NCBI GenBank assembly: GCA_963920765.1
Contig: OY987242.1
Location: 30,342,002-30,406,001 of the forward strand
DNA length: 64,000 nucleotides
Source: Ulota crispa
Taxonomy: Eukaryota > Streptophyta > Bryopsida > Orthotrichales > Orthotrichaceae
Reading direction: 5' to 3'
In this document: one piece after another, positions 7,675 to 63,114 of the stretch
Layout: every line of letters starts with the position of its first letter
Position numbering within the stretch: position 1 is the stretch's first letter
Position numbers and translations under genes: made by a program
Notes under the pieces: generated by a model
What the model saw: the letters and a program-made list of their open reading frames with translations, nothing else
What the model was told of the DNA's origin: nothing
The model's database searches: none

Positions 7675-7678
7675 TTAA

Positions 7679-8634
7679 CCCCTAAAGGACCAAGTGGCTA
7701 TTCAACAGCCACTAGAGAACTCGGGTAGGGTCATATGGAGTTAACTTTTACTAGATGTTCTCAAAATTGTTACGCAAGGTGCAAATATGTATCCCCCAAG
7801 TGGAAATCTAATTTTTTTCCCAATCAGATGTCCAGTTCAAAAGTTATGTTGCCCAAAAGAAATTGGGTAGTTCGGGAAGTTTGAGCATCTTTGGAGGATC
7901 TTATGCTAAAACTCTCATCAACTTTTGAAATTTGGCAAGTATGTAACTAAAAAAACATGGTGTAAAATTGTCAAAAACAAATTAAAAAATTAAGCTCTCA
8001 CATCACATTTTGAAGGGAGTCAAACTTTGTTAACTATGTTTGGGCAGTTTCAAAAAAAAAAAATCCACTAACTTCAAGCCCTATTATCTTTCAATTTATA
8101 AATCCAAAGCTCTTGAAACTTTTTTCCACATATTCCAAATGTTTGTTTCCAACATTTTACCATTCAGATTTCAAATAAAAGACTTCCTCATTGCACAAGA
8201 AATCATGAAAGAATGACTAATGTATTGCCAATTCACTAAACCTCCTTGCATTGGAAGGTGATTTAGAATAAGCTAGACTCTATATTTGCATCTGAAAACT
8301 TTCATGAGGGAACCTAACATCATATACTTGTGAATGATCAAAAAGCTCAAATTTGTGTAGAGTAAAAATTTTACTCTATGAAGGCTCAAAGTCTATTGGC
8401 CTTGTTTTGCAGGAATGAAAAAAATTTGTTTTTCTCACTTCAAACGTTATAATTTTACAATCCGCGAGGTCAAATGGGTTGAATTTTTTTGCACATGTTG
8501 ATTCATTGGTTTTACAAACTTTTGTACGGTTGAAATTGAGAAAAAATGTTTTGATTTTTGATTTTGGGTAATGCCCTAAAAGCTTGCCGTTTCTTGAGAT
8601 TTTTTCTCAAAAAACACCCTTGGTCCTTCAGGGG
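7679..8634. mobile_element. TTAA-site non-autonomous DNA element, 0.9-kb class, copy 1
   Basis: The element is flanked by TTAA at 7675-7678 and 8635-8638. The left end reads CCCCTAAAGGACCAAG and the right end, reversed, CCCCTGAAGGACCAAG. It is 956 bp with no convincing ORF. The TTAA target with CCC-starting TIRs is the signature of piggyBac and also of Sola3. No transposase is present, so the superfamily is inferred. Confidence 0.75.
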
Positions 8635-8778
8635 TTAAGAAAGTGTAAAATTTATGGCATGCATTATTCTTAGAATATGTCATTAACCCATATGGGATTG
8701 ATGGATAATTTGAGACTTTCATTACTCACAATCAGAAGTAGTTTTTAGTATGATGGTTCTTATTGGAAGTATTGACTG

Positions 8779-9032
8779 GAACACCATCGTTGTTAAATTG
8801 AAAAAAAGAATACATTTTGGGACTTCTGAATTTTGAATTTTGCATTTGTGAGAGTCCTTTGGCAATTTAAAATGAGTTTTATGATAATTCCTTCAAATCC
8901 CTACATCACTGATGTAAGATCTTGAAGAAATCATCATAAAATTCACTCTAAATTGCCAAAAATCTCTTGAAAGTGCAAAATTTAGAAGTCCCAAAATGTA
9001 TCCTTTTTCCTAATTTTACAATAATGGTGTTC
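8779..9032. mobile_element. Foldback MITE with GAACACCAT ends (family L), copy 1
   Basis: The left end GAACACCATCGTTGTTAAAT is mirrored on the right by an AT-rich end finishing in AATGGTGTTC. The inverted arms also share ACATTTTGGGACTTCT. The interior is AT-rich and non-coding, 254 bp in all. Relatives lie at 17254-17512 and, more diverged, in the GT92 intron at about 44340-44910. A partial right end is near 41600. Confidence 0.6.
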
Positions 9033-9088
9033 TAAGTAATGGTATCATGTATTAACATAATCTAACATTGCTAAAATGTGTACCTTAA

Positions 9089-9444
9089 CCCTTAAAGGAC
9101 TGACCCTAAACCCGTGGCTCAAACCTAAGAGAGTGTGCACTGTTCATGGGCAACAAACAGCCTATGGCATGTGTTCAAGAGAGATAATATTCTCCTCAAA
9201 AGAAGGAAAAGTCAATAGTGTATCCTACCCTCACAAAAAGGGCAGCAAAGACCTTGTACATCTCTTTACAAATTGGTGTTTTAAAAAATATGGAGACATT
9301 GAAAGCAGTTACTTTTGGCATTCAGTGATGTGGCACATCTCTCTGACCACTTTCAAAAAAAAATAGAAAAAAAATACTTTTCCACCCTTGGGGTGTGTTT
9401 GCGGCATTGAAAGGACAATTTTCGTCCTCTTGGACGGTTAGGGG
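9089..9444. mobile_element. TTAA-site MITE, 357-bp class, copy 1
   Basis: TTAA flanks lie at 9085-9088 and 9445-9448. The left end starts CCCTTAAAGGACTGACC and the right end finishes GGACGGTTAGGGG. It is 356 bp. The interior closely matches the copy at 41988-42345, including CCCGTGGCTCAAAC near the left end. A 96-codon open stretch across it is not preserved in the second copy and is not treated as a gene. Confidence 0.8.
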
Positions 9445-9448
9445 TTAA

Positions 9449-10213
9449 TTTAGTAGAATCATGGGAAGCAAAATATGTGAAAATTTACTATATGCACTTT
9501 CAATTCAGTACGGTAGTACTTTTGAAAATATAAGCTTGAAAATTACAGTAATAAACAAATACTAAAAACTTTTAAAAACTAACCACTTTAAGATCATCAC
9601 ATTTCAAGTTCATTTCAATAAACCTCACTCCAAATTTATCAAGACTTTTCCTTTAATCAAATTTAGAAAAATTAATGATTTGTGTGCATCAAATCTTATA
9701 TTAATAAAGTGATATGAGTATAATCTAAATTACAAAATCTACAATCTTCATTCACAAATCATATTCAAAATACTCCCCTACTTTTACACATTTTGATGGA
9801 TCTTTACAAATCTTCAAAAATGAAGAACCATGTGACCTTTAAGGATTAACATGATTGATTAGGGAGAGAATGAAGGGCTATTTCACTGCTATATAAAAAG
9901 TTTTTTTGGACATGTGAAATGTAAAGTTTGTGGAACAAGTTTTCATATGCACATCCTAATAACGCAATACTGCAACACGCAAATTTCATCAAGTGACACA
10001 ATTTTGAATTTGTATCTAACAATGAAGAGGTTCCACAAGACTTTCAAAAACATAGAATAATCATGTGACGACGTGAAAATTTTAGTTTAGCCTGCGAGAC
10101 TCTAGATTTTTCACTCGCTTTTAATTTTTTCTCATGTAATTTTATTTACAATTCCCTTTTACACTTTTTGGTAATGAGAATGGAAATTTGAATAATATAG
10201 TTTTAAAAGTATA
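9449..10213. other. AT-rich intergenic stretch
   Basis: No gene, repeat border or terminal inverted repeat could be recognised here. Confidence 0.4.
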
Positions 10214-10419
10214 CACTAAATAGTGCATTTAGGTTGCCCCACACTAATTTCTTGATATTTTACACTATGAAAATCCTTATTGGTACTACAAAAAATTTCA
10301 TCAATAATTACTACAATAAATGAAATTAAAGGGTTTGGTAATAACAAATTGGAAAAAGACAAACTAGTTGTGTGTACATCAAATATCATGTGATATCCTA
10401 GTATCTAGTTAACTCTTAA

Positions 10420-10658
10420 CCCTTGAGCGCCCAACCTATGTTCACTAAAATTCAGACTTGTACAAACTCATTCTAATTAAATTGTTATCAAAACCAAGAT
10501 TCATAAATTGACCTTATCAGTAGGGAGTGGAGACAGGCCCTAAGGTACAAGAAAAAGGACAAATGTTTTGACTATGCCAATCAAAAGATTATAGCAATCA
10601 AAAAGGAATCTTCTTTTATTCAGAGTGACCAAAATTTGGTCGCTCGAGCGCTCAAGGG
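10420..10658. mobile_element. TTAA-site MITE, 240-bp class with GAGCGC ends, copy 1
   Basis: TTAA is at 10416-10419. The left end is CCCTTGAGCGCCCAACC and the right end GGTCGCTCGAGCGCTCAAGG followed by TTGA, a one-base variant of TTAA, at 10659-10662. It lies directly against the next TTAA element. The sequence after the left end (TTCACT, then AATCC-like tracts) recurs at 52045 and 62890. Confidence 0.7.
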
Positions 10659-10662
10659 TTGA

Positions 10663-11532
10663 AGGATCAAGCACATTTTTTCTCAAAAAATACTCAAAAC
10701 TGTCATTTCTAGTGATTTGATCCCAAAAACAATCTTTTCCAAAAAACCTCAAATCTAACCTTAAGGTCTTGTAGTAGACTCATTTAAGAACATACCATGA
10801 AATTTTTGTGAAGTTTGACCATACGATTTGCGAGATATAATCATAAAAAGGTATTATATAAAAAAAAATTTACTCCTGCCCAAAATTTTGGTGCCTTTGA
10901 CCACACGTGGTGAACAATTTTTGCACTATAGGTGCTAAAGAGATTTGTCTAAAATGCTCTAAATCATGTTAGGCATAAGCTTATCTCTCTAAGTTTTTGT
11001 GATCAACCAAGACTTGGAACACACCCTCCATGGCCTTGCATTGCAAACATATGCTTAAGATTCACACTACACTAAGGTTTTCTGCCAATCAAGTTTTCTA
11101 AAGATATATTAAAGAAAATAAAAATCCAAACAACAGATTGAAAGAGTTTAGCTTCAATGACAATCTCAAGAAAGAAAATTGGAAAAAGAACCAAATCTCT
11201 AGTAGCTATTGCAATTCAAAGGTTAATGTATTTATTTAGTACACTATTGCTTTGGATAGATTCCAATGAAGGATCATCCCTTCATTGGTTCCCTTTGGGA
11301 GAAGTCAACAAAAAATGGCATGCCCAAGCTACCCCTCCAACTCAAATTCACATGTTTACCCTTGTAACTTTTGAACCGTAAATCAAAATTCAATAAAAAT
11401 TATTCTCCCACGTAACTCATGCAAAACTCTAGCTTTGGAGAAAAAACTATATAATTTGGTCATAAATTGTAATAGCATGACCTTGCCCAAAATCTCATTT
11501 GCCCCCCAAAGGGACAAATGGTCCTTTAGGGG
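10663..11532. mobile_element. TTAA-site element, 0.9-kb class, copy 2
   Basis: It begins AGGATCAAGCAC directly after the shared TTGA and ends GGTCCTTTAGGGG before TTAA at 11533-11536. The left interior (TCAAAACTGTCATTT, then a GATCTTGTAG-like motif) matches the copy starting at 61824. The outermost bases of its left TIR are missing or shared with the neighbouring element. Confidence 0.65.
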
Positions 11533-11638
11533 TTAATTGCATGTGCCTCCAAGTGGCCAAGCAATGAGTCATGAGGTAACATACAAGGATATAGTATTCT
11601 CATTGTTAAGGCAACCTAAATGCACTATTTAACGTATA

Positions 11639-11944
11639 CCAAATAATGCATTTAGGTTGCCTCAACAATTAGGTTGCCTTACCTTGGAAGTTACCTCATG
11701 ACCCACCACTTGCGCACTTGGTTGGAAGTGCATGCAACTCTTTACAAATTTAGACTTCATTTAAACATATAACTTGGATATTGCTAGTTTGTCTTTCTAC
11801 ACCTTTGTAGTAGTTGTCAAGTCTTTTAAAAATGATTTATTACAATTATTATTGCAGAAAATTACTGTAGCTATAGTAAAAGTATTTAAATGATGTGGAA
11901 TGTCGAGAAATTAGTGTGGGGCAACCTAAATGCACTATTTGGTG
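11639..11944. mobile_element. Family G MITE, copy 2
   Basis: The ends ATGCATTTAGGTTGCC and GGCAACCTAAATGCACTATT are inverted, with TA on both sides (11637-11638 and 11945-11946). The interior contains CTTACC, ACCTCATGAC and ATGCAACTC, shared with the copy at 49718. It stands head to head with family G copy 1. Confidence 0.7.
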
Positions 11945-11946
11945 TA

Positions 11947-12903: not shown

Positions 12904-12907
12904 TTAA

Positions 12908-13444
12908 CCCGTAAATGCCCAAGGGGTAAGGGCAAAACATAAATGCATTCAAAAAAATACTCTTGTAACTTCAATGAAGTTTGTTTCAAAAGAAAAAATA
13001 AGAATCATGATGTTTAGCAATTATCCATACGGTCAAATATTCAAAAAAATTGTACTCTTATTTAATGAATTTAGAAGCATTTCCCATTTAATATTCATCA
13101 AAATTACAAATTTTATTCACAAAGTTTAAAATTTGGTTTGGTTGGTTAAAAATAGACATTCTATTTGAAAGTTCAAAAATGTAATATTTTTGATGGAGAG
13201 CACATTATTACTTTCTTGCAATAGTAAATTTTGTAACACTAGCAAATATTGAAGTGTTTGTTTTTGAAAAATTCTCCTTGATGGAGTTTAACTTGGATTG
13301 ACATAATTCAAATTGGGTTAGAAAGAAGACATGCTTTCCTAAATGAAAATATTTTTAATTTTTCCAAATTTTTTTTTTTTAATATTTTGAGCAGCCTGCA
13401 AAAAAGGGTAGCGACCAGAAAATGGACGATTGGGCGTTAAGGTG
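12908..13444. mobile_element. Probable diverged TTAA-site element
   Basis: TTAA lies at 12904-12907 and 13445-13448. The left end is CCCGTAAATGCCCAAG and the right end, reversed, is CACCTTAACGCCCAATC. The TIR match is weaker than in the other copies. It is 537 bp with no ORF. Confidence 0.5.
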
Positions 13445-14520
13445 TTAAAGAACCTTGTGAGAAAGAAGAGTATCTAATTGTATTGGATCCTATTACAAGG
13501 TAGACACATCCATATCCAATTATTTAAGGGTTTAGGGTCTTGGAAAATTCAAGAAAAAAATCTATAGGGTTTGCCTTTCAAGAAGCTATCATGGAACGTA
13601 ATTTTTGTGGAAAAATGTATTGCAGATATTTTAACACTAGTAGAAAATTTAGCACAAAATCAACAAAATTTCAACCAAAAACTATTGATTTTTTCTGAGA
13701 ATTTGGTCAAGTTGATTTGGGTACTTTTCTGTTGATTATTTACAATTTTTTGTTAATTTTTTGTTGATTTCTGTTACGTATTTTATGTTGTTCAATTCTA
13801 TTTCTTTTCAATTTTAAAATTTTTTTTTTCATAGAATTTTATTTTATTTTATAAAAAAGTGAAATTTTTAGAGGACGGGCAACTGCCCAAGCCCCGGGCA
13901 GCTGCCCAAACCCTTGGGCAGCTGTCGGCAGTGGGGTTTGAACCCCCCACCTCTATCCTCACACTCTACAACTCTATTTCATTCTCAATAACCACTAGAG
14001 AATGTGCAAATACACATGCACGTTATAATATCATGATTCTATTTGTACATTAAATGTTCATGTTTTTAGTAATCCAGTAGACTTTAGAGGCTATTTCCGC
14101 CCATTAAAGGATTTTTTTTCAAAAAACTTAGAACTAAGAAAAGTTGGTAAATATATTTTACTTTCACCTCCAACAATTTTTTTTGGATTTCAATCTTTTT
14201 ATCAAAAGTAATGAGCTAAAATCAGAGAAGGTGTTTAGAAATTTTAAATAAATTGTTTATTTCCATCCTTTTGATTTTGTTTGTAATTTTTTTTTGGAAT
14301 TCACAAATCTCCTAAGGATTGTTGCAAGCAAAGGTTGGATTCATTAATAATTATTATTTAGTGCTAGTTTTTTTTGTAAAAAGAACCTTATTTTGTTAAA
14401 ATAGCATCCATAATTTGATAGCTTCAAATAACATGAAGTCGTGAAAAGTTACGGAATTAAAACCTTGCAATTATAAAATCAAAATTTTATAGACTTTTGA
14501 ATAGTTTTGGATATTTTTTA

Positions 14521-17237: not shown

Positions 17238-17241
17238 TTAA

Positions 17242-18425
17242 CCTCTAAAGGCCCAAAATACCATATTAGGTAAATTGGGAAAAATAGAGGGATCATTTTG
17301 TATTCCACCTTAATCTTACATATAGTAAATGTAGGCATAGCATAGCTCAAAGTTGTAAATTTTTGAAATTTTTGGAGGCAATCATTGAGACTTCAGAATT
17401 ATACAAGAAAGTGCACTCTTATTTTTTGTAATATGCTAAATTGTACATAATGACAAAAATAGTGAAAGCCCCATATATTGTTTTTCTCAATTTACCTAAT
17501 ATGGCGTTTCAAATAGTGTTTTTTGGCAACATAACGATTTTGGGCAGCTCACTACAAATGGTTATTTTCTTGAATATTTTCACACATGATGTGCCCAATG
17601 AGTTGCTTTAAGGTCCAACAATTTTCATAACTTTTGATTACATGGTTCAAAAGTGATTGCATGATATGTAGTTTTATTTGTTTATTGGGCAGCCCGAGTT
17701 GCTCTAAAAACTTTTAAAAAAATTACATTTAAAGAAAAGAAAAGAAAAGTGAAATATGTTCTTTAGATTTATGTATATGTGGGAAGCTTTGAATCATTCC
17801 ATTTTAATCAATGAGATGAAAGTTATGAGGAGATTTTGTTTGCAGGCAAGTATGGATTCTCTGCTCTAAATTAAATTTTGAAGTCCTTTATTTTACTCAG
17901 TTTTCAATATTTTGGAAAAACGAATAAAGCAAAAGGATGTAGATTTTTTATTAAAATATTTCAACCATTGGTATTAACTTTTTTCATTTTCATTATTACA
18001 TTCTTAACAATTTAGTGTTTTGAATCATTCTCTACTGTTTTTTATTTACTATTTTTTTCCATGTGTTGTGTAGTTCCAACTAATTTGAATTTTTTTGACT
18101 GTGTACCCAACTTTTCTTGGAGAATGAATAAAAAGAGTAATACAAATTTTGGAATTTTTTTCATACAAATATGACCTTGTGAAGTGCACATGCCCAAGTT
18201 TTTGGAAGGACAAAAAATGGCTTCTTGTCAATTCAAACTTAAATATCTAACAATCTACATGGTGGAAATTTTTGGTTTTGTTTTCACATCTTTTGATACT
18301 AGTGTACTACAAGATCTTATGGTTATGTGTGTCCAAAAATGATTTTTTCTAAAAATTGATACTTGTACTAGAAATGGCAGATTTGGAGTGGTTTTGGTGA
18401 AAACTTAGTCAAAAGCCTTTAGGGG
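17242..18425. mobile_element. TTAA-site element, 0.9-kb class, copy 3, carrying a nested MITE
   Basis: TTAA is at 17238-17241. The left end is CCTCTAAAGGCCCAA and the right end AAAAGCCTTTAGGGG followed by TTAC, a one-base variant. Subtracting the nested family L MITE (17254-17512) leaves about 925 bp, the usual size of this class. The interior shares TTGGGCAGCTCACTA and ACACATGATGTGCCCAA with the foldback at 55054-55809. Confidence 0.7.
17254..17512. mobile_element. Family L MITE, copy 2, nested in a TTAA element
   Basis: The inverted ends are ACCATATTAGGTAAATTGGG and CTCAATTTACCTAATATGGC. Internally, CATTTTGTATTCCACC and a GTACATAATG segment relate it to family L copies elsewhere. Borders are approximate. 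Confidence 0.55.
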
Positions 18426-18429
18426 TTAC

Positions 18430-23151: not shown

Positions 23152-24510
23152 GTTTTTTTTTTGGGCAATTTACGACCCAATTACCTCAAAAAAAGAAGGT
23201 GAGCTTCAAGCCTATAGAAGAAAAAAAGGGAGGTTTTTTTTCAAAAAATGCTAGATTACAATAATGAAAATTGCATTGTGGTCTGGGCTTTCATAAAATT
23301 ATTATCATTGAAAATTGATGTTATCATTTAAAAATTATTTGAGATGTTGCCTAATCCAATTCCATGCAATAATTAACCCCTAAAGGACCAAGCCCTTTTT
23401 TCTGTGAAAATCACTAAAAACTGCCACTTTTAGGAGGTTTAATAAAAAAGGATTTTGTGTTTTTTTTTGGGAAATTCAACCAAAGGATCTTGCTCTAGAC
23501 TAGAAGAGGTACTTGTGGGAAAAAAATCAGCTCATTCCAAATGGAGAGGAGTGAGGTATTTACATCTAAAGTGAAAAAAAAGTTTTTTTCTATGATGCCC
23601 AAAAATTTCAGAAGCCTTTAACCACTCTTATAACAAAAAAATTGCTCTACCCAAAGTTGCGCTTTATTTTTCCAAGTAGGAGATCAAGTTACGTATGTGT
23701 AGGAGAATTTTCAAATCAATTGGAACTATACAAGAAATGGGAAAAATCACTAAGTAAAAAGAAGTAGAGAATGAGTCAAAACATTAAATTGTTAAGAATT
23801 TAATTATGGAAATGAAAAATGCCAATCCAATGGTGATAATGTTGTGATAAACAATCTACTTCCTTTGGTTGATTTTTTTTTCCAAAATAATGAAAATTGA
23901 GTAAAATAAAGGACTTCAAAGTTTATTATAGAGTAGAGATTCCATAATTGCCCGCAAACAAAAACTCCTCATGATTTTCATCTCATTGATTGAAATTGAA
24001 TGATTCAAAGCTTCTCAAGAATAAGAAAAGTTGAAGAACCAATTTCAAATTTTAATTTTAAAAAAAAAAAAATTTAAAGTAGTTTTTGGGCTACCCAGAT
24101 GGGCGATTCTCCCCAAATTTTCATAAGTTTATGCATAACTTCTTCATCAAATGTCAGAGTGAAGAAAAAGTTAGATGCTCATGTAGATCTTTGAATTTGC
24201 CACCTTTTAATCAAAAGTTTCAAAAAATCACACAAAGTAGTTTAGCCATAGACACATGCCCAAAGTCCAGCCTGTCCCCAGAAGGAACAATGGTCCTTTA
24301 GGGGTTAAGTAATGCCAAAGGATATTTGGATATTTTCAAAAAACGGCCAATGAATACTTTTTGCCCTCAAAAAAAAAATCCCATGATGCTACTAAAAGCC
24401 ATGCATAGGGACCACTTTCAACTCCAACCAAAATAGGGATGGAGTTTGCAAGCTACAAACCATTTTCAAAAAATGCCACAGAGCCATTGGTCAGCAAACA
24501 AAAAAAAAAC
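23152..24510. repeat. Repeat family K, copy 1, split by a TTAA element
   Basis: The segment 23152-23372 (TTTGGGCAATTTA, then AGCTTCAAGCCTATAGAA) and the segment 24309-24510 (AAAAGCCATGCATAGGG, then CAACCAAAATAGGGATGGA) both occur, inverted, at about 54700-55045. The copy is therefore one repeat of roughly 500-600 bp split by the element at 23377-24304. Borders are approximate. Confidence 0.5.
23377..24304. mobile_element. TTAA-site element, 0.9-kb class, copy 4
   Basis: TTAA lies at 23373-23376 and 24305-24308. The ends are CCCCTAAAGGACCAAG and ATGGTCCTTTAGGGG. It is 928 bp. The interior stretch AAAAAGAAGTAGAGAATGA, then AATTGTTAAGAATTTAATT, is shared with the copy at 61824-62729 and, inverted, with 17242-18425. 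Confidence 0.8.
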
Positions 24511-29646: not shown

Positions 29647-29650
29647 TTAA

Positions 29651-29872
29651 CCCTTGAAGGACGAGGCTACTATAATACATACTATGTACGGTGGCATTTG
29701 ATGCCAACAAAAGTTTTGATTTGGGATCTTGACTACTTCACTAGAACAACATTGATCTATATTCTAACTTCTTTGTTGACTTTAAATGTAATAAAGGTGT
29801 GAATGTATTTCAAATACTAGAAAAATATCCCATATTGTACTGGCCGCAAAGGGTTGCCTTGTCCTTTATGGG
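29651..29872. mobile_element. TTAA-site MITE, 225-bp class, copy 1
   Basis: TTAA lies at 29647-29650 and 29873-29876. The ends are CCCTTGAAGGACGAGG and TTGTCCTTTATGGG. The interior AATGTAATAAAGGTGTG and ATTGTACTGGCCGCAAAGGG is shared with the copies at 29939 and 39272. Confidence 0.8.
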
Positions 29873-29938
29873 TTAATAAAAAACATCTTTTCTGTAATAC
29901 GCTTTGATGAGATGTGCTGTACGAAGGCCTTGTTTTAA

Positions 29939-30164
29939 CCTTTAAACGACAAGAGGGCATTGTATATACATTGCCGTATAATGGGCAATTGCTACCAACA
30001 AAAGGTTGTAATTTGGGATCTCAAATAGCTCACTATGACCGCATGGATCTATTCTCCAACTTCTTGGTTGATCTCAAATGTAATAAAGGTGTGGATGCAC
30101 TCCAAATACAAGAAAAATACATCGTATTGTATTGGTCGCAAAGGGCTGCCTCATCCTTTAGGGG
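29939..30164. mobile_element. TTAA-site MITE, 225-bp class, copy 2
   Basis: TTAA lies at 29935-29938 and 30165-30168. The ends are CCTTTAAACGACAAGAGGG and CATCCTTTAGGGG. It has the same orientation and layout as copy 1, about 60 bp upstream. An 84-codon open frame through it is not conserved. Confidence 0.8.
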
Positions 30165-30600
30165 TTAAAGAATTTTTTTGCAACAATGTGCTTTGATATG
30201 ACATTTATTTGGCTTTTTCAGGTAAATGTATCAAACTATTTACTAAGTTCCATTATTCAAAAATGGCTAATGCCCCTTTCACACTTGTACATTGAAATAA
30301 GGAAAGAGTGGCTGTAAAATTGTTTTATGTAGGACTGTTCACATTTACTAGAGTTATTAGGAGCCATTCCTACTTGGCAGATTTGTCACAAGGCTCGTTA
30401 TGGAGTGCTTACAAAAAGTAGATAGATAAGCATCCGCAATTTCCGCAATTTTTTGCTAATTCATTTTACTCCAAATTCTTGTAGAAAATGTACATTTGAG
30501 GGATTCTCGGAGCCATAGAAGCAGTTTTAGGAAAACTTGGCTCGAGGCCTCGATTACAAAGGACCACTGTCCCACATTTTTTGTTAACTACTGCTTTTGT

Positions 30601-33691: not shown

Positions 33692-35055
33692 TCAATTACC
33701 ATGAGGGCACTGAGTGGTGAGGTATACTCCTAGAAGCCTCCGCTTTTGAATTGCGGCACCATTCCACACACCATTGACTTTGGCATCGGGAAAAGCTTGA
33801 TGATTTTCTGGGTCCTCAATCCCTATGTTCTCATGGGCAGGCTTGACATAGTTCCCCTGCCTCTTGATAACAGCCAAAAACTCTTCCACGGCTTCCTTCG
33901 ACTGTCCAAGCAAAATATTGTGCAAAATGGCGCAGCACATAATAACATCTGGGAGAAAGGAAATTTCAAGGTTAGACTTGACTAATAGCTCACGGAATGT
34001 AGACTTCATAATATCAAAAGCATTTTTGACAACACACCTGTTTTTTTTCAGTCTTCTATTGAAGACGGACTTGGACATAGAAAGAGGGTTCAACTGAGGG
34101 TGAGGGATCATTAGCCAGGATAAGAGGGGATAACCTTGGTTGCCCAAAATGTAGGGAGTGAACCCATCTTCTCTCCCTTCATTACCAAACAAGTTGCCAT
34201 TTGTTGCAAGGTTGTATAAAGATGAGTGCCTCAAAACTCTTGAGTCATTGGTAGACCCTGGCATGCCCAAGAATAGGTCAAGAAATCTTTTTTTGCTATC
34301 AACTACGGCCTGGCAGTTAAGAGTATATCCCCCGACTTAAAGTAGTAGTAATCACTAGGGACATGCCGAGGTTTACCGATAGAGACGTGAGTCCCGTCAA
34401 TCACTCCAGCTATAGCCGGTAAACCACAGAGACAAGAAAACTTTTGCTGGGTCAATCTTAAGCGCTCTCCCGTGGGCAAGGAAATATTATGTTTTAGTGT
34501 GTCATTGATCACTCTGACGACATCTCAAAGAATAGACCTGACAATGCTCCTTCCGAGTGCAAACATCTCGAAGCATATGTTAAGAGGAACACTGTGTGAG
34601 AGCTTGAATAAAGTGCACACTATCCAAATTTTTACATGGATTGCAGCACGATACCTTGTGTTCTGCCTATAGATTTGTGGGGATAGGATGTTTGCAAGCG
34701 TGAATACAGAACGTCGGGACATTTGGCAGAGCTCAACCCACCTCGCATCATTATACTCCGCCATCAAAAACCGAGAAAACCAAGCAGTCAACCGAGGTTT
34801 CACCCAGAAGCCAAGGTCCTCTTCCAAAACCGTAGGTGCTATTAATAAGCAGAAGGAGTTTATCCCATTGTGCATAGCAAGCACGGGATTCTCCAAGGTC
34901 TTGCCGAGAGTGTCCAACATCATTTGCAGTGATGTGCTCGCATCCTCCTCCTCAGGACCCGCCGGCAAAGTCACAAGGTTTTGCGCAAACAACGTTTGCA
35001 CAACAAACCACACTCTAAGAATCAGCGACCGACGTGCATTGTCACTCAAATCCAT
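33692..35055 (-). pseudogene. PIF/Harbinger DDE transposase, broken
   Basis: Starts at ATG 35055 and reads to TGA at 33692. Recognisable parts in order: an N-terminal region with WVELCQMSRRSVFTLANIL, the first catalytic aspartate in AGVIDGTHV, the second in GMPGSTNDSRVL, then GYPLLSWLM and CVVKNAFDIMKSTFREL, and LHNILL near the end. The usual third acidic residue, glutamate in a VVE-type motif before AFG, appears as lysine (VVKNAF). An in-frame TGA lies at 34525-34527. A one-base loss in a G run near 34322 shifts the frame between the first two aspartates. A probable 5' untranslated intron runs from donor GGTGAGTTT near 35389 to acceptor CAG at 35068. The protein cannot be active as it stands. 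Confidence 0.85.
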
Positions 35056-39152: not shown

Positions 39153-39271
39153 TGAATTATACTAGATTTTTAGTTTTACTAGACTTTTCCCTCAAACATA
39201 TGTATGAAAAACTTGATAGTTGATACCGTATTTAAGTTATGCAAGAATGTTGTATGGTGCATGACACTCAA

Positions 39272-39497
39272 CCCTTAAATGACCAAAAGGCCCTTTGCGA
39301 CCAGTACAATACAGAGTATTTTTCTTGTATTTGGAACAGATCCATACCTCTACTACATTTGAGACCAACAAAGAAGTTGGAGAATAGATCAATGCAGTTC
39401 TAGAGAGCTACTTGAGATTCAAAATTAATTTTTTTTATTGGTAATAAATGACATTTATACATTAGTGTATATACTATGCCCTATGGTAGTTTAAGGG
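39272..39497. mobile_element. TTAA-site MITE, 225-bp class, copy 3 (inverted)
   Basis: The ends are CCCTTAAATGACC and TAGTTTAAGGG. The right flank is TTAA at 39498-39501 and the left flank TCAA. The interior CCCTTTGCGACCAGTACAAT is the reverse complement of the stretch in the 29651 and 29939 copies. It is 226 bp and lies about 440 bp upstream of the ubiquitin-eS31 start. Confidence 0.75.
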
Positions 39498-39837
39498 TTA
39501 ACTTATAACCAACAATTTCCAATTCAAGTGATTAGCGTAAGGCTTTTTCAAAAAAAATATTAAAAATTTAAGTCTACCAAGATGAAGCTTAGGATTTATC
39601 CCATTCAATAGTGGAATTACTTTTGAGCTAATGAGCTAATGAGTATATATGTTGTGCTTTAGTATTTCTTATTTGGACAACAGTTGTTGGTTATAAGTGT
39701 CATGCACTATACCTCCCACATCAAGAGAACGTAATGAAAAAATCCTCACTAACGAATGAAAAGGTAGTCCTCGAAGGATTGGATGAACAGAAAATATCGG
39801 ACGGAACCCTAGAGGCCGATCGTATAAGCAGGACACG

Positions 39838-39936: not shown

Positions 39937-40563
<627 letters not shown>

Positions 40564-41983: not shown

Positions 41984-41987
41984 TTAA

Positions 41988-42345
41988 CCCTTAAAGGACT
42001 GACCCTGAACCCGTGGCTCAAACTAGGAGAGTGTGCACAGTTCATGGGCAGTAAACAACTTGTGGCTTGTCTCCAAGAGAGATAATATTCTTCTCAAAAG
42101 AAGGAAAAGTCAATAGTGTATCTTGCCCTCACAAAAAGGGTAGCAGGGACCTTGTACATCTCTTTACAAATTGGTGTATAAAAAAATATGGAGGCATTGA
42201 AAGAGGTTATTTTTGACATTCAATGATATGGCACATCTCTCTGCCCACTTTCAAGAAAAAAAAATTGAAAAAAATATATTTTTCCACCCTCGGGAGTGTT
42301 TTCGGCATGGAAAGGATGATTTTCGTCCTCTTGGACTGTTAGGGG
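41988..42345. mobile_element. TTAA-site MITE, 357-bp class, copy 2
   Basis: TTAA lies at 41984-41987 and 42346-42349. The ends are CCCTTAAAGGACTGACC and GGACTGTTAGGGG. It is 358 bp and similar to 9089-9444 along its whole length with scattered substitutions. Confidence 0.85.
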
Positions 42346-42349
42346 TTAA

Positions 42350-46800: not shown

Positions 46801-47005
46801 GAGAGACTGCTGTCGCCGGGGATGTCATGACAGGGGACGCGCTGGGGTTGATGACTCTGTGGTTCGGCCACCACAGCTGTTGCGACAGGCGGATGTTGGT
46901 GGTGAGAAGTGCCAGCAGGAGGAGCACATTCATGAGCAGCAGGATCACGACAACGTTCAGCATTCCCGCTCTCGATGGTGGCACCTCCGTCACTCCCATC
47001 TTCAT
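43868..47005 (-). CDS. GT92 glycosyltransferase, probable beta-1,4-galactan synthase type
   Basis: Exon 1 runs 47005-45837 and exon 2 44234-43868, giving 511 residues with the phase-2 join making a lysine codon. The intron is 1602 bp with donor GTCAGT. The ATG of MKMGVTEV is chosen because the frame upstream has no ATG. Residues about 15-37 form a single hydrophobic segment, as in a type II Golgi membrane protein. The catalytic domain shows PYEYTFCVSRLYGD, HFLFHDAGG, LNDCMFRA and FFFDVDEYLYIP, where DVD at about 333-335 is the metal/nucleotide-sugar motif. It ends with KWAFEKLVF, YATGVH-like ATGVHLGEY, and LYHYHGVI. These are hallmarks of GT92 (DUF23), whose plant members (GALS) extend beta-1,4-galactan side chains of pectin in the Golgi. 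Length is close to plant GALS. Substrate is inferred. Confidence 0.87.
44340..44910. mobile_element. Two diverged family L MITEs in tandem in the GT92 intron
   Basis: The first (about 44340-44580) begins GTTATTCGTTAAATTGGG and ends CCCAATTTAACAAATAACGT. The second (about 44630-44910) begins ATATTCATTAAATTGG and ends AAATTAACGAATATGGC. Both contain GTGTACCCAAAAAA and a GGTGATCACC palindrome. Borders are approximate. Confidence 0.5.
45159..45442. mobile_element. Family F MITE, copy 2, in the GT92 intron
   Basis: GGGAAATTTTATGGGATACC on the left and GGGTATCCATGAAATTTT plus CCC on the right are inverted repeats. It is 284 bp, with an interior TTTCAGAAATTACA shared with copy 3. Flanking duplication is not certain. 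Confidence 0.65.
45794..45816. repeat. Homopolymer run of 23 G beside the GT92 donor site
   Basis: An unbroken G run (C on the coding strand) begins about 20 bases inside the intron of GT92. Its length is likely unreliable in sequencing and may vary between individuals. Confidence 0.9.
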
Positions 47006-48200
47006 CGTTCTGAAATCTCGCACGCGCGTCGTCACGAGCAATCTCAAACTCGCACTGCAAGCTTCGTTCCAGGCCAGCTATGTACCTTCACCAAATACTT
47101 CTAGTCCTCATTGGGCACACCATTCAAAAGAACGCTGTGTAAAATGCCTCTATCTTCTAACGTGGCCTGTTGCCGTGGACCTGCTTTCAGAACCCCCCGG
47201 AGCAAGTTGAGTCACCATGGTGACGTGTGTCCGTCCATCTCCTTGCAAAATCCCTGGGAAGAACAGATTCGTCAGAAACTCAGCTGATAGTCTCCCTCCC
47301 ACGCTGGAATTTCAACTACGAATTCAAAAATTCATGGATCTGTCTGAAAGGATTGATCACGAGCAATGCGGAGTCACTTCGAAGCTGAATTAACTAGTCA
47401 CGACCCTCTTCGCATTGAAACAACTAAAATTCGCTCAAACTGTTGGTAGCAGGCACGTACTCCTCCTGTACCGACTAAAACCCTGTTCCTGTTCAATCAA
47501 AGTCATGACCGCGCGAGGGCCAGCCCAGGACAGATTTACTACCCAGGCTGCAATAACAGAAATACTGTGTCCCAAGATGTCTCGGAATTCAAAGCAGCTA
47601 TGACGGATTCACTCCTCTCGAGAACAAGAGCGACCTCTCAGTCGAATTGAGATGCAGGCTGTCTAGGTTGCTCTTGTGCACGAGGCGTCTCTCTACAAGG
47701 ACTTTTAACAAGTGTGATTCAAACCTACCGAACCCAGAAATACATTGAAGAAAGGTGCGACTTTTGCTTTTTCGAGATTTAATGGTTGTGGTAGGTAGTA
47801 CCGTAACGCCGTGTGGGGATAACCGTGCAGCTAGTAGTAGCACACTAGCACTGCCCAGATACTGATCTTGCTGACAATCGTCGTTAACATTTACAGGCAG
47901 CAGTGAGTGCGGTGGAGTATTGTATAAGCACTACAGTAGCTAGTGTGCATTAGAATTTTGAGCAAGCCACTGTGAGCTGAAAGTGCCCATTTCCTGCAGC
48001 GGGGGGGTGGACTTGGAGAAATGGAGATTGGAGGGGGGGTGTAGCAGGAACGGACTTATTATTACAGCGATGGCCTGGGGTGGTGGAACCAGTAGACGAG
48101 TGAGGCTGGTGACAGAGAAACAGCCGCTGCTGCGCCAGACCATCGAACACCAGCTTGCAATCCTACGAGATTAGCAACTACTCCACTGGGACTAGTCACA
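47006..48200. promoter_or_regulatory. Upstream region of GT92
   Basis: A stretch of moderate GC content without repeat borders lies upstream of the GT92 start and probably holds its promoter and 5' leader. No TATA box or specific site can be assigned with confidence. Short open frames on both strands are not recognised. Confidence 0.35.
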
Positions 48201-51521: not shown

Positions 51522-52041
51522 TCTTCAATACATTCACTGGGAATGGGGCGGGGCCTGGGACGGGGAAACACTGCTATTTTTGACTAGTATATAATTAGAA
51601 TATGAGATTATTATTATTGGAAGCGTATACAAAAATGTCGTCAAACAAATAAAATGACATATGGTATTGGAAATCGGATAATTAAACTAATGTCCATTGA
51701 AAAAATAGCTAAAGCACAAACAACACGGCAAACTATATCTAATAAAGAATAATTAGATAATGGCATTCCAAATCAAATTTTCAAAATTTGGAGTGCCATT
51801 ATCTAATTATTCTTTATTAGGTATGGTTTGCCGTGTTGTTTGTCCTTTAGCTATTTTTTCAATGGGCATTAGTTTGATTGTCCAATTTCCAATACCATAT
51901 GTCATTTTATTTGTTTGACGATGTTTTTGTATACGCTTCCAATGATAGTAATCTCATGTTCTAATTATATACTAGTCAAAAAATAGCAGTGTTTCCTCGT
52001 CCTAGGCCCCGCCCCATTCCCAATGAATGCATTGAAGATAC
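51522..52041. mobile_element. Nearly perfect foldback element
   Basis: Two arms of about 250 bp are inverted around a short centre near 51780. The left arm starts CATCTTCAATACATTCACTG, then GGGGCGGGGCC. The right arm ends GGCCCCGCCCCATTCCCAAT, then GCATTGAAGATA. The arms differ at only a few positions, which suggests recent formation. There is no coding sequence. It seems to have cut off the left end of a 240-bp-class TTAA element. Confidence 0.75.
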
Positions 52042-52263
52042 TAGCGCAAGTTCACTCAAATCCAAACCCTTTGGAACTCATTCCAATCAAACTATCACCT
52101 AAAAGAGATTCACAAAAATTAACCATATTGATTGGTAGTGAACATAAATCTGAAGCTCCAAAAAAAAGGACATATCCTTCCACCATATCACATTATAACA
52201 GTCAAACGAGGAATTTTTTTCAAAACAAAAAGGCCATATTTTAACCCCTTGGGCGCTCAGGGG
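52042..52263. mobile_element. TTAA-site MITE, 240-bp class, copy 2, left end missing
   Basis: The interior TTCACTCAAATCCAAACCCT matches the copy at about 62890. The right end reads GGGCGCTCAGGGG before TTAA at 52264-52267. The left TIR is absent where the foldback element ends. Confidence 0.55.
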
Positions 52264-52701
52264 TTAAGCTTCATATCTATGAATTAAGATGGTGACGTTA
52301 GGGGCTTATTATTAACGGGAGAATATTCAGCATGTTGAATTCCACCGAACTAGTAGTCTAGTACTTCCCAGAGGACCAGTGGTCTTAAATGTGGTTTTAG
52401 TAATCCTAAAGCAGGGTTGTTTTTTTTTTTAGCTTTCTGACCAGTGACTGTGTGGCAGGATATTTTTTTTAGGCTTGCCGAATTCAAGCTTCAAGTCTAT
52501 ACAAACAAATGAGGAAAAAATAGCGTCTTCTTGCCAGATGTCGTTCAACGTTTCAAATCTAGATGCCTGCTATGCATCAGAAAAAAGAATATGTTGTTGT
52601 TTGTAGCTAGTCAACTAGGAACTTAGGTTGAAAACAAAGTAATCTTCACACAATGTGGAGTCGTATTATATGAAAATCAAGTCGTTTAGAAGTTTTGTTA
52701 A

Positions 52702-53625
52702 CCCCTAAATCCTTGGGGCCTTTATTTTGTCAAAAGACACTCAAAATTGCCATTTCTATTGCAAAGAGTAAAAAAATTTGAGAATTGGTCTTTTTGCATA
52801 TTTAACAGTAGGATCTTGTACTAGACTAGTATAAGAATGTGGAAATAAAGATTCAAAAACTTTGACCGCATAGATTGCAAGTTATTTGCATTCAAAGTGT
52901 AAAAAACAGATTTTTTTGCTCCTTGCATGACTAGACTATTTGACTTTGAACTTTTTTAACTTAAAATCTTTGCACCACGGAGTTTTGGGGTTTATTTTTG
53001 TATGGTGGAAAATTGAGTTGAGAATTTTTAGAAAAAAATCAAAACAAAAAATACTTAATTTTCATTCTTAAAAAAAACATTAGGTAGAAGAAGGTATGAG
53101 ATTGAACAAAAACTTAAATTGTTAATAACCTTGCAATGGAATTGAGACTCAATAATCCTAATGGTGAGATTGTTCTAGCAAGCAAACTTTACCCTCTCCA
53201 ACAAATTTTTTTGAAAAAATGTTAAACCTGCATTCAAAAATGAAGTTTATAAGTTATTTTTTCAAGAAGATGCTTGAGTTGCCCAAAAAACAAGATTGTC
53301 CATAACTTTCTCTTAACTAGTCCAAATGGAATGGATCAAAGCTTCAGATGTAGACAAAACCATAATCTATGAGGAAAAATAAATAAATAAAACAAATTCA
53401 AGCTTTTGTAAAAAATTTTTGCTGCCCAATTTGCATAATTTTTTGCTTATCTAGGCATAACTATTGCTTTTGGGCATTGATTGGAATAAAAATTATATTC
53501 CCCAAAAGCTAATGTGTTTTCCTATTTTCAAAAAAAGTTTCAAAAAATTGGGACAAAAATAGAGGCTGTAGGTACCTGCCCAAAATCCCATTTGTCCCTC
53601 AAGGGGACACTTGGGGATTTAGGGG
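52702..53625. mobile_element. TTAA-site element, 0.9-kb class, copy 5
   Basis: TTAA lies at 52698-52701 and 53626-53629. The ends are CCCCTAAATCCTTGGGG and CTTGGGGATTTAGGGG. It is 924 bp. The interior TCAAAATTGCCATTTCTA and AGGATCTTGTACTAGACTAG follows the class layout. Confidence 0.75.
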
Positions 53626-53629
53626 TTAA

Positions 53630-55053: not shown

Positions 55054-55809
55054 GCCTAAATGCCTAAGCAATGTTTTTTTTTGGCAACAAAGCAATTTTG
55101 GGCAGCTCACTAAAACGATTTCTCAAAATTTTGTCTTTGGAATGTTCACACATGATGTGCCCAAGGAGTAGCTTTAAGGTTCAACAATTTTCATAACTTT
55201 TGACTACATTGTCAAAAAGTTATTGCATGATATGTAGTTTTCTTTGAACTCTTGGCAGCCTAGGTTGCTCACAAAACTTCTTTAGAAATCACATTTAAAA
55301 AAGAAAAATCTTGGAAATAGGTTCTTTAGATTTATATATATATACATGGGAAGCTTTGATTCATTCAATTTTTATTTATGAGACAAAATTTATGAGAAGT
55401 TTTAATTTGCAAGTAGGTATGGCGGTTTTAAGAGTACTCCATACCTAATAGCAAACTAAAACTTCTCATAACTTTCATCTCAACAATCAAAATTGAATGA
55501 ATCAAAGCTTCCCACGCACCGGCATATATAAATCTAAAGAACCCATTTCAAATATTTTTATTTTTTAAATGTAATTTCTAAAGAAGTTTTATGAGGTGCC
55601 AAGGCTGCTGGGAGTTCAAAGAAAACTACATATCATGCAATAACTTTTCAACCATGTAGTCAAAAGTTATGAGGATTGTTGAACTTTAAAGCTACCCCAC
55701 ATGCACATTATATGTGAAAGTTTCAAAGAAAAAAAAATGAAAAATCCATGTTTAATGAGCTACCCAAAATCACTATGTTGCCAAAGAACACTCCTTGGGC
55801 CTTTAGGGG
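55054..55809. mobile_element. Palindromic TTAA-class foldback element
   Basis: The right end CCTTTAGGGG is followed by TTAA at 55810-55813. The left end is degraded (GGGCCTAAATGCCTAAG). Two arms of about 350 bp, 55083-55435 and 55441-55795, are inverted copies. Both contain GCATGATATGTAGTTTTCTT and its complement, and a GGCAGCC/GGCTGC motif. The arm sequence matches part of 17242-18425, so the element looks like a 0.9-kb-class end duplicated head to head. Confidence 0.65.
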
Positions 55810-56047
55810 TTAATAATATGAAATAGAGAAAATAATTGGAACAATTCCTTTGTAATAAAATGGTTCAATATGGAAATTGAAGTGTATCAACTGGTCAAAC
55901 TCAAATATTTCCCAATATTGCCTTCATTTTGTCTAGAACCATGAAATAGAATAAAAACAACCAACTCCAAAATAGAGAGCAAATAATCAAATTTATCCTA
56001 GTTTGTATAACAAACTCAAATTTTCCACCTTGGCACACACAAACATG

Positions 56048-57720: not shown

Positions 57721-57722
57721 TA

Positions 57723-58603: not shown

Positions 58604-58654
58604 ATGATCCATTAGGGGCTTCAAATTCTATTGGTTTCAAACTCCTACATTAAA

Positions 58655-59321: not shown

Positions 59322-59352
<31 letters not shown>

Positions 59353-60740: not shown

Positions 60741-60744
60741 TAAT

Positions 60745-61224: not shown

Positions 61225-61586
61225 TGATTTTTATATGGTAGAAAATCAGTCAATCTCTGAACATTGTAGACTCGGAATCTTTCCTGTCATAAGCTGGTTA
61301 TCCTGGAATCTCACCTGAGCAAGGCTGCCAGGAGTCCAGGAACCAGGGGCAGGGGCCAGGGGGTCAGGTTTCGTTCTAGAGTCGGTACTACTTCTGTACC
61401 GTTTCGGTACCTTCTGCACCGAACCCTCCTCGAAAAATTCCTTCAACCATGCCGTGCACAGCGTCCGAGCAGCTTTTTCAAGCTCCCCCTCTAAGAGCAT
61501 CTCCAGCGTTACACTGCAGTGTCTGACATACTTCAAGCGTGGATAATTACTGTAGTGCTAAGGTAGACAGACCCATACGCGATCGT
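61225..61586. other. Intergenic stretch with GC-rich patch
   Basis: 61310-61500 is GC-richer and holds an open minus-strand frame with LEKAARTLCTAWLKEFFEEG, not recognised. A GAGCATCTCCAGCG motif at 61497 resembles the end of the 49564 element but has no partner. Confidence 0.3.
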
Positions 61587-61590
61587 TTAA

Positions 61591-61819
61591 CCCCTGAGCA
61601 TCTAGAGTTATTTTTGGACTTAGGAGAAAATGGGGGTTTAATGGCCACCACGGCTTGGAAAATTACATTTAGAAAAAGTGACCGTAGGATTTGAAAAATG
61701 ACTATCTTCTTTGTTGATGAGAACTAGCAATGACTGTTTTCACCGTACAGATTAATAGAAAAAATGAGATAAAGTTGTGGGCCCCAACGACAGGATCATG
61801 TTGCTGGGGCACTCAAAGG
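61591..61819. mobile_element. TTAA-site MITE, about 230 bp, first of a chain of four
   Basis: TTAA is at 61587-61590. The left end is CCCCTGAGCATCTAG and the right end GGGGCACTCAAAGG, followed by TCAA (61820-61823), which is shared with the next element. Confidence 0.65.
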
Positions 61820-61823
61820 TCAA

Positions 61824-62729
61824 CCCGTAAAGGACCAAGCAAAGTTTTCACCAAAAACTCTTCAAAATTGTCAGTTTTAGAGCATTAACCAAATTTGATA
61901 ACAAAAACAATTTTATGCACATGTGACGGTAGATCTTGTAGAACAATGGTTTTAGAAGATGTGGAAAAAAATTCAGAGTTTTCCACCTCATGGATTGGAA
62001 GTTAGAATGGTTTGAATATTCAAAAACGTCTTGTGAAAAATACAGCTACCCTTCAGAAGGTGAAATTCCTAAGGAAAAAAGGCCATGTGGGTGGTGTTCT
62101 CTAAGTTCCTTATTCCACCTAAGTAAAGTACATGTGAAAAAAGTTTCAAATCATTTAGAGTTGTATAACATATGGAAAAAAATTAGTAAGTAAAAAGAAG
62201 TAGAGAATGATTCAAAACACTAAATTGTTAAGAATTTAATTATGGAAATTAAAAATGCCAATCCCAAAGGTAATAACATTGTTATAAACAATATTCATCT
62301 TTTGATTTTTTTTTTCCCAAAATGTTGAAAATTGAGTAAAATAAAGGACTTCAAAGTTTATTTTGGAGTAGAGAATCCATAACTGCCCGCAAACAAAAAA
62401 TCCTCATAACTTTCATCTTGTTGATCCAAACGGAATGATTCAAAGCTTCTTACATTCACATAAATCTCCTAAACCAATCTAAAAATTTTGTTTTTGAAAA
62501 AAGTGATTTTTAAAAATCTGCCTAGACTGCTTGACAAATGTAAAAAACAACATATTAGGCCATAAATTTTTACTCGTAATTCCAAATGTCATGAAATTTA
62601 GTGCATATGAAAGATAAACCTTGTCCCCACATTCTATTAAAATTTCAGCCTAAAACATGAAAAGCTCCAATCACAGGTACCTGCCCAAAATTGCTATGTT
62701 TCTAAAAAAGGGGTCTGGTCCTTTAGGGG
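61824..62729. mobile_element. TTAA-site element, 0.9-kb class, copy 6
   Basis: The ends are CCCGTAAAGGACCAAGC and CTGGTCCTTTAGGGG, with TTAA at 62730-62733. It is 906 bp. The interior AAAAAGAAGTAGAGAATGA is shared with 23377-24304. Confidence 0.8.
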
Positions 62730-62733
62730 TTAA

Positions 62734-62878
62734 CCCATGAGCAAGGTTTTTTTTCTTGGCAAAAATTTGCCAATTGCCTCAAATTTTCACAAATAACTTT
62801 TAGTCCCTCCAGATTAACTCAAATGGGGAGGGGACAGCTAAGCACTCGTTTGCCAAGAAAAAAAATCCTACCCCTGAG
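62734..62878. mobile_element. Short TTAA-site MITE, about 145 bp
   Basis: CCCATGAGCAAGG then TTTTTTTTCTTGGC on the left; GCCAAGAAAAAAAATCC on the right. It shares TTAA 62730-62733 with the preceding element and overlaps the start of the next one. Confidence 0.55.
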
Positions 62879-63110
62879 TGCCTAGGCCATATTCACTCAA
62901 ATCCATACCCTTGTGTACTTAATCCAATAAAAGTATTACCTAAGTAGAGTCAAATAGCTTGAATTTTTTTGAGTGGTAGTAGACACATGCATGGAGGTAC
63001 TTGAAAAAGTATAAGTCTTTTGACTTTACCATTAAGAAGAGGATAAGAGTCAAACATGGACATTTTTCAAAACTGAGCGACCACATAGTAGTTGCTAGGG
63101 CGCTCAAGGA
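62871..63110. mobile_element. TTAA-site MITE, 240-bp class, copy 3
   Basis: The left end is CCCCTGAGTGCCTAGG and the right end GGGCGCTCAAGG before TTAA at 63111-63114. The interior TTCACTCAAATCCATACCCT matches copy 2. The left TTAA is altered to CCTA. Confidence 0.6.
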
Positions 63111-63114
63111 TTAA

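What the first reader, a model, noticed from the sequence alone, without database searches (positions are those of the whole stretch)
7675..63114. A dense TTAA-targeting transposon family, piggyBac- or Sola3-like, in a plant genome
At least fifteen elements sit in TTAA (or one-base variants) and start CCC[CT]TAAAGG or CCC[CT]TGAG. There are several size classes: about 0.9 kb (7679, 10663, 17242, 23377, 52702, 61824), 357 bp (9089, 41988), 225 bp (29651, 29939, 39272), 240 bp (10420, 52042, 62871) and smaller. TTAA plus CCC ends is the classic piggyBac signature. From general knowledge piggyBac is rare or undescribed in land plants, while Sola elements are known from moss. All copies here lack a transposase, so the driver lies elsewhere in the genome.
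Basis: partly seen in the sequence, partly recalled or inferred. Interest (0 to 1): 0.78.

Follow-up and report, generated by a model that had tools for sequence, protein, structure and literature searches.

The report
Moss genome packed with piggyBac transposons
This moss chromosome is full of short mobile DNA pieces that jump into TTAA sites, and the same genome holds many longer elements with a piggyBac-type jumping enzyme, a transposon group best known from animals and little documented in land plants.

Summary
The window has 19 exact TTAACCCYTRA ends (0.25 expected); the 275-Mb genome has 55,720 (2,128 for the pattern read backwards).

The host is a moss: a LEAFY exon matches PDB 4bhk in 87 of 89 residues.

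The driver exists: 120 matches to the piggyBac transposase family DDE_Tnp_1_7, best 1.3e-73 (116 of 528 candidates scored). Ten of the first 20 loci have TTAA-CCC-type ends 5-7 kb apart around the transposase. Window element 12904-13448 is made up of the two ends of one of them, L018, 0.4 Mb away. A 0.9-kb element shares both ends with a 5.6-kb relative whose right arm is that of a transposase locus. A copy nested in a sister copy shows TTAA duplication.

Corrections: the '0.9-kb class' is several families; the 225-, 240- and 357-bp classes and 7675-8638 are tied to piggyBac mainly by the terminal motif.

New: 17 of 25 sampled transposase loci carry upstream, on the same strand, a conserved ~95-residue domain without a Pfam match. 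Sampled transposases look broken.

The parts
7675..8638 (+). 956-bp non-autonomous element (7679-8634), TTAA on both sides
   Evidence: Ends; 40 candidates scored of 1,843, best 40 rows 88-100% (itself included) and nearly full length; unrelated flanks in sister copies and an empty site in L032
9085..9448 (+). ~356-bp element, TTAA both sides
   Evidence: 88.6% to 41984-42349; copy also in L021
10409..11536 (.). 0.9-kb element whose terminal repeat is split by the 239-bp element
   Evidence: 252 bp at 81% and 567 bp at 78% to the two ends of L040; first part also in the right arms of transposase loci L012 and L039
10416..10662 (+). 239-bp element (10420-10658), CCCTTGAGCGCC end, TTAA left, TTGA right; nested in the element above
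   Evidence: same terminal motif on transposase locus L016 (both ends) and L023 (right end)
12904..13448 (.). 545-bp element, TTAA both sides, made up of the two ends of the transposase-bearing element L018
   Evidence: L018 right end 1-387 matches 12904-13292 at 82.5%, left end 1-167 matches 13448-13283 at 71.5%; L018 bracket and transposase
17238..18429 (.). 1.2-kb composite element, TTAA / TTAC flanks
   Evidence: right end scores 50 to L040 right end, shuffles at most 28
23373..24308 (+). ~0.93-kb element, TTAA both sides
   Evidence: copy in L019 at 80%; both ends match L040/L012 ends beyond the terminal repeat
29647..29876 (+). 225-bp-class element, TTAA both sides
   Evidence: family with the next two; ends
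29935..30168 (+). 225-bp-class element, TTAA both sides
39268..39501 (-). 225-bp-class element, TCAA / TTAA flanks
41984..42349 (+). ~358-bp element, TTAA both sides
   Evidence: 88.6% to 9085-9448
52038..52267 (.). 240-bp-class element; left terminal bases missing
   Evidence: right end exact TTAACCCCTGAGCGCC; 52 bp at 83% to 62892-62943
52698..53629 (+). ~0.92-kb element, TTAA both sides
   Evidence: right 53 bp shared with 10409-11536; both ends match L040/L039 beyond the terminal repeat
55440..55813 (.). element with one clear right end; left end not found, start given only as the edge of a shared block
   Evidence: exact TTAACCCCTAAAGGCC; blocks shared with 17238-18429 and 23373-24308
61587..61823 (+). 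~229-bp element abutting the next one and sharing its TCAA
61820..62733 (+). ~0.9-kb element, TCAA / TTAA flanks
   Evidence: about 310 bp at 86% to 23373-24308; left end matches L040/L039 beyond the terminal repeat
62867..63114 (.). 240-bp-class element, left flank CCTA, right flank TTAA
   Evidence: 86% over 246 bp to a copy in L013; ends

Best explanation
The window elements are non-autonomous members (MITEs) of several piggyBac-superfamily families in a moss nuclear genome. They inserted by cut-and-paste at TTAA, duplicating those four bases, and were moved in trans by piggyBac transposases encoded by 5-7-kb elements elsewhere in the genome that carry the same ends. Shown: the terminal motif and its excess, TTAA duplication for one family, piggyBac transposases between TTAA-CCC-type ends, one window element made of the two ends of such a transposase element, and others sharing long ends with transposase loci. 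Inferred: catalysis, movement in trans, internal deletion as the origin of the short elements, and that amplification is not recent (scored copies of the 7675 family are at most 93% like the window copy).
For: 19 ends against 0.25 expected; 55,720 against 2,128 genome-wide, 3,503 against 0 for a longer motif. DDE_Tnp_1_7 gives 120 matches over its cut-off, best 1.3e-73; L011's frame matches PDB 6x67 at 1.6e-25 and piggyBat 9c0f at 2.7e-21. Ten of the first 20 loci have paired ends. All three catalytic Asp in 17 of 25 loci (my reading). Window 12904-13448 matches both ends of L018, 387 + 167 bp of 545. L040 shares both ends with 10409-11536, and its right 1.2 kb is 87.5% like that of transposase locus L039, with further repeats matching back towards the transposase. 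Filled and empty site in L032.
Against: Of 21 ends of bracketed loci (plus L019) compared with the window, only the two ends of L018 match it. L040 has no recognisable transposase; the left ends of L012 and L039 were not found. Beyond the right end, L012 and L039 both continue into sequence like the right end of L013/L019, turned round; I read this as an abutting second element, but it is not resolved. The 225-, 240-, 357-bp classes and 7675-8638 share little beyond the terminal motif with the transposase loci sampled. 15 of 25 transposase loci show no complete pair of ends. 8 of 25 lack one or more catalytic Asp, and none of the 25 shows one uninterrupted frame for the whole protein.
Confidence: 0.95

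Rival explanations
1. The small elements belong to Sola3, another superfamily recalled to duplicate TTAA and to occur in moss, and share CCC ends with piggyBac by convergence.
For: The 225-, 240- and 357-bp classes are tied to the sampled transposase loci by little more than the terminal motif. No Sola profile was at hand, so Sola elements in this genome are not excluded.
Against: The same motif flanks piggyBac transposases, including the GAGCGCC form of the 240-bp class on L016 and L023; 12904-13448 is made of L018 ends; 0.9-kb elements share long ends with piggyBac loci.
Confidence: 0.03
2. The TTAA is part of the repeat, and the elements spread as segments or satellites, not by transposition.
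For: TTAA stands beside nearly every copy, and without an empty site it cannot be told from the element.
Against: L032 holds a copy inserted in a sister copy, with one TTAA in the uninterrupted sequence and two around the insert; seven copies compared have unrelated flanks, five with TTAA on both sides and two with a one-base variant on one side; the 239-bp element splits a terminal repeat at a TTAA.
Confidence: 0.01
3. The piggyBac sequences are contamination of the assembly by an animal or fungus.
For: piggyBac is chiefly known from animals and fungi (recalled); no read data were available.
Against: Matches lie on contigs C1 to C11, including C1 with the window and C4 with the moss LEAFY exon; the end motif runs through the listed part of C1 and the window.
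Confidence: 0.01

Closest known systems
piggyBac superfamily (PDB 6x67, recalled to be the cabbage-looper piggyBac; piggyBat, PDB 9c0f)
   Same: TTAA target, CCC ends, DDE_Tnp_1_7 domain with three Asp and a Cys-rich tail
   Different: Moss host; elements 5-7 kb long; a conserved upstream ~95-residue domain in 17 of 25 sampled loci; very many short copies
Coral CMITEs (PMC2872659, passages read)
   Same: MITEs with TTAA duplication and CC[CT]T ends, one family derived from a piggyBac-like element, one inserted at a TTAA of another element
   Different: Coral; there the internal region is more conserved between families than the terminal repeats, here families share mainly their ends
PiggyBac MITEs of angiosperms (PMC10004981, one passage read)
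   Same: MITEs in land plants filed under piggyBac
   Different: That passage groups MITEs by TIR and TSD; here the transposase-bearing partners are in hand
Sola3 (recalled)
   Same: TTAA target duplication, reported from non-seed plants
   Different: Other transposase; nothing here requires it

Membership tests
piggyBac superfamily | TTAA target site duplication | tested here: met
   Filled and empty site in L032; TTAA on both sides in 5 of 7 copies of the family, a one-base variant on one side in 2. Window: 9 of 14 elements exact on both sides
piggyBac superfamily | 12-19-bp TIR with CC[C/T]T terminal motif (definition read in PMC2872659) | tested here: met
   Most window ends CCC[CT]T. Ten bracketed loci: the two ends agree in 8-12 of the first 12 bases. 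Exceptions: CCCCA at both ends of L020 and L022 and one end of L017; TCC at the left of L023; several window ends
piggyBac superfamily | DDE_Tnp_1_7 transposase with three catalytic Asp | tested here: met
   120 matches over the curated cut-off; 17 of 25 loci keep all three Asp, 8 do not (read by eye)
piggyBac superfamily | C-terminal cysteine-rich domain | tested here: met
   Cys pattern seen by eye in e.g. L010, L013, L014, L020; not found in L009, L028, L039
piggyBac superfamily | Seamless excision restoring one TTAA | not testable with these tools
   Needs allelic or cell data
piggyBac superfamily | Short copies share ends with transposase-bearing elements | tested here: met
   12904-13448 with both ends of L018; 10409-11536 with L040 and the right arms of L012 and L039; subterminal matches for 17238, 23373, 52698, 61820. 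Inconclusive for the 225-, 240-, 357-bp classes and 7675-8638
MITE | Short, high copy, TIR and TSD, no transposase | tested here: met
   1,843 candidates for the 956-bp element, 40 scored; no piggyBac domain listed in the window
Sola3 | Sola transposase in a full-length relative | not testable with these tools
   No Sola profile at hand; the paper recalled to define Sola was not held

The most novel reading that the evidence does not exclude
Mosses host their own large branch of piggyBac in which the transposase is accompanied by, or spliced to, a conserved ~95-residue domain not known elsewhere, and this branch, perhaps gained from another kingdom, is a main source of short DNA transposons in this lineage.
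Probability: 0.4. Interest if true: 0.72.

Novelty: new variant of a known kind. Interest (0 to 1): 0.6.

Why it matters
piggyBac is a standard TTAA transposon tool for animal cells, and its natural range in land plants is poorly documented. A moss with hundreds of transposase candidates and tens of thousands of ends gives plant-resident TTAA transposons to study, an upstream domain whose role can be tested, and a way to ask whether mosses gained piggyBac sideways; Mariner elements of Physcomitrium have been reported as closer to fungal than to plant ones (PMC7466625, passages).

Tried and rejected
Sola as the driver: not needed once piggyBac loci with shared ends were found. One-family reading: rejected by self-comparison. 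L040 as the autonomous parent: it shares both ends but no transposase was recognised in it. That the L012/L039 right end is merely an inserted short element: L039 and L040 stay alike for 1.2 kb at 87.5% and further towards the transposase, well beyond the part shared with the short element, so I hold it unlikely; similarity of L012 and L039 to turned-round L013/L019 ends just beyond it stays unexplained. Relatives of the upstream domain: none convincing (best PDB hit a TRPC1 chain at 0.019; three chance-level Pfam hits of single members, E 0.026-0.13). Viral carriers: one scan of viral contigs with one transposase found nothing; it reaches close relatives only. Ten paper searches listed no paper on piggyBac transposases in a moss; the library holds open-licence papers only, and a piggyBac survey and a Sola paper that I recalled were not held. 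Structure prediction was not used because its stated rule names other sources than these loci.
Full report
What was checked. The window lies at C1:30342002-30406001 of a 274.8-Mb genome in 157 contigs. The exact end motif TTAACCCYTRA occurs 19 times in it, against a mean of 0.25 in 100 dinucleotide shuffles; TTAACCCYTRARNRCC with one mismatch occurs 17 times against 0.07. In the whole genome TTAACCCYTRA occurs 55,720 times against 2,128 for the pattern read backwards, and TTAACCCYTRAGCGCC 3,503 times against 0. At two ends an element this is of the order of 27,000 elements with exact ends, or one end per 4.9 kb (my arithmetic).

Host. SAM_LFY gives six matches, the strongest (1.2e-27) on C4. 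An exon downstream (L031; translated) matches PDB 4bhk in 87 of 89 residues (204 bits), far above PROTEIN LEAFY 2vy1 (141 bits), and has D, as 4bhk does, where 2vy1 has H. That 4bhk is the Physcomitrium protein and that this D marks the moss type is recalled. The host is therefore a moss; ten contigs of 15.8-41.4 Mb (lengths) and C11 of at least 5 Mb would fit a moss with 11 chromosomes (inference).

Families. Blast of 15 window stretches against the window shows the 357-bp pair as one family (88.6%) and the 225-bp trio as another (74-80%). The 0.9-kb elements are several: 7675-8638 stands alone in the window; 10409-11536, 23373-24308, 52698-53629, 17238-18429 and 61820-62733 share terminal stretches of 30-60 bases or internal blocks. 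For the 956-bp element, 40 of 1,843 candidates were scored; the 39 best rows besides itself are 88-93% alike and nearly full length, three further rows are partial.

Target duplication. In L032 a full copy of the 7675 family sits inside another copy of the same family: GTCAAACTTTG-TTAA-[CCCCTAAAGG ... CTTTAGGGG]-TTAA-CTATGTTTGGG. The uninterrupted sequence is present in the window (8010-8060) and, with one change, in the inserted copy itself. The six best sister copies and the window copy have unrelated flanks; five of these seven have TTAA on both sides, two a one-base variant on one side. In the window the 239-bp element 10420-10658 sits in a TTAA inside the terminal repeat of the 0.9-kb element (TTAACTC-TTAA-...-TTGA-AGGATC); the relative L040 shows the unsplit end TTAACTCCTAAAGGACC. 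A terminal repeat that reads CCCTTAA thus holds a target site for its own kind.

The driver. PF13843 (DDE_Tnp_1_7) gives 120 matches over its cut-off on C1-C11, best 1.3e-73, with 116 of 528 candidates scored, and none in 14 control genomes. A frame of L011 matches 6x67 (1.6e-25) and piggyBat 9c0f (2.7e-21). I fetched 20 loci around transposases chosen from the best and the less broken matches and five more later. In ten of the first 20 the transposase lies between TTAA-CCC-type ends 5.0-7.0 kb apart (L011, L013, L014, L016, L017, L018, L020, L022, L023, L026). For L016 the left end lies at the edge of the stretch and for L023 it reads TTAA-TCC, so these two pairs are less sure. The two ends agree in 8-12 of the first 12 bases. 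17 of 25 transposase loci keep all three catalytic Asp by my reading; L009, L016, L024, L025, L027, L028, L041 and L042 do not (in L042 the second lies in another frame). Ten of the 120 rows have no stop in the matched part, but none of the 25 loci shows one open frame over the whole protein, so whether any copy is active is open.

Link between window elements and the driver. The clearest case came from comparing the 900-base ends of the ten bracketed loci, and the right end of L019, with the window: of these 21 ends only the two of L018 match, and both match the same window element. L018's right end 1-387 matches 12904-13292 at 82.5%, and its left end 1-167 matches 13448-13283 at 71.5%, which together make up the whole 545-bp element. 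L018 (C1:30792000-30800000) lies about 0.4 Mb from the window and carries a transposase with three Asp. Second, L040 (C10) is a 5.57-kb element whose two ends match window element 10409-11536 over 252 bp (81%) and 567 bp (78%). L040 itself has no recognisable transposase. Its last 1.2 kb is 87.5% like L039 up to L039's end, and the stretch before it matches L039 in tandem repeats reaching back to about 250 bases from the end of L039's transposase region; L012 shares the last 0.8 kb (72.6%). The left ends of L012 and L039 were not found. In a genome search with L012, 38 of 40 scored places match only its last 590-810 bases. Just beyond their right ends L012 and L039 both continue into sequence that resembles the right end of L013 and L019 turned round; the first 122 bases of this in L012 recur widely (1,411 candidates, 40 scored). 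I read it as a second element abutting the first, but did not resolve it. Third, comparing 80-base window ends with ends of the long elements against a few shuffles that keep the first 16 bases, 11536, 18429, 23373, 24308, 52698, 53629 and 61820 score well above the shuffles, 9448, 10662 and 61587 by 8-11 points, the rest by 7 or less or not at all. For the 225-, 240- and 357-bp classes and 7675-8638 the assignment rests mainly on motif and TTAA.

Upstream domain. Frames upstream of several transposases share a stretch of about 95 residues (alignment A1). A profile of 14 copies finds it in 17 of 25 transposase loci, on the transposase strand, 1.6-3.1 kb upstream. Only L026 (2e-13), L028 (4e-7) and L042 (0.006) are outside the training set. 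It is not found in L012, L013, L015, L019, L021, L039, L041 and L043, so the branch linked to the window's 0.9-kb elements lacks it, while L018 has it. Controls: none in the window, L029, L031 or L040; L030 has a match at 0.55. In the genome one copy finds 88 places; 36 of 88 lie within 8 kb of one of 116 listed transposases, each of the 36 with a transposase downstream on the same strand (among 38 pairs one further transposase lies on the other side), against a mean of 0.58 and a maximum of 4 in 1,000 random draws. No Pfam family or solved structure matches convincingly. Whether it is a 5' exon of the transposase or a second protein cannot be told from DNA alone.

What is known. I saw passages, not whole papers. 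A review of land-plant transposons says that plant TIR elements fall in six superfamilies, and the word piggyBac does not occur in it (PMC9033089). Against a claim of first discovery: two piggyBac papers name plants among hosts in passing (PMC10813416, PMC8086355), a plant review lists PiggyBac among plant superfamilies (PMC10794571), a 2015 survey lists PiggyBac among superfamilies found in all groups studied (PMC4438587), a MITE review lists it among angiosperm MITE superfamilies (PMC10004981), and the Ceratopteris and Stipa genome papers tabulate 1,230 copies over 122 kb and 1 copy (PMC6890710, PMC8319324). Ten searches listed no paper on piggyBac transposases in a moss; the library is partial.

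Verdict. The finding is real, and piggyBac is the right superfamily. It is a known kind of element in an unusual host, at high load, with an upstream domain that appears new.

Noticed in passing
L009, L010, L011, L014, L016, L017, L018, L020, L022-L028, L042 (weak), L044, upstream of the transposase: Conserved ~95-residue domain on the transposase strand without a Pfam family or convincing PDB relative; possible 5' exon or second protein.
   Followed up: partly
L012:6434-6555 and L039:6731-7303: Just beyond their right ends both transposase loci run into sequence like the right end of L013/L019, turned round; perhaps abutting elements that share a TTAA.
   Followed up: partly
window 33692-35097, - strand: PIF/Harbinger-type transposase remains: 33692-34336 matches DDE_Tnp_4 at 1.5e-25.
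   Followed up: no
L030 (C1:33973746 region) and four other places: Five weaker SAM_LFY matches outside LEAFY; L030 also has a frame with a BED-like zinc-finger look (my impression), so a LEAFY-like SAM domain may sit in a mobile or hAT-like gene.
   Followed up: no
window 10201-10260 and 11600-11700: The words TTTAGGTTGCC and TAGTGCATTTAGG or near variants and their complements recur in both places, perhaps another short repeat family (seen).
   Followed up: no
L012:4873-5494: Long simple repeat between transposase and right end that reads HTYI without a stop.
   Followed up: no
window 40087-40563 and 45773-47077: Ubiquitin-S27a fusion gene and a glycosyltransferase family 92 frame among the transposons.
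   Followed up: no
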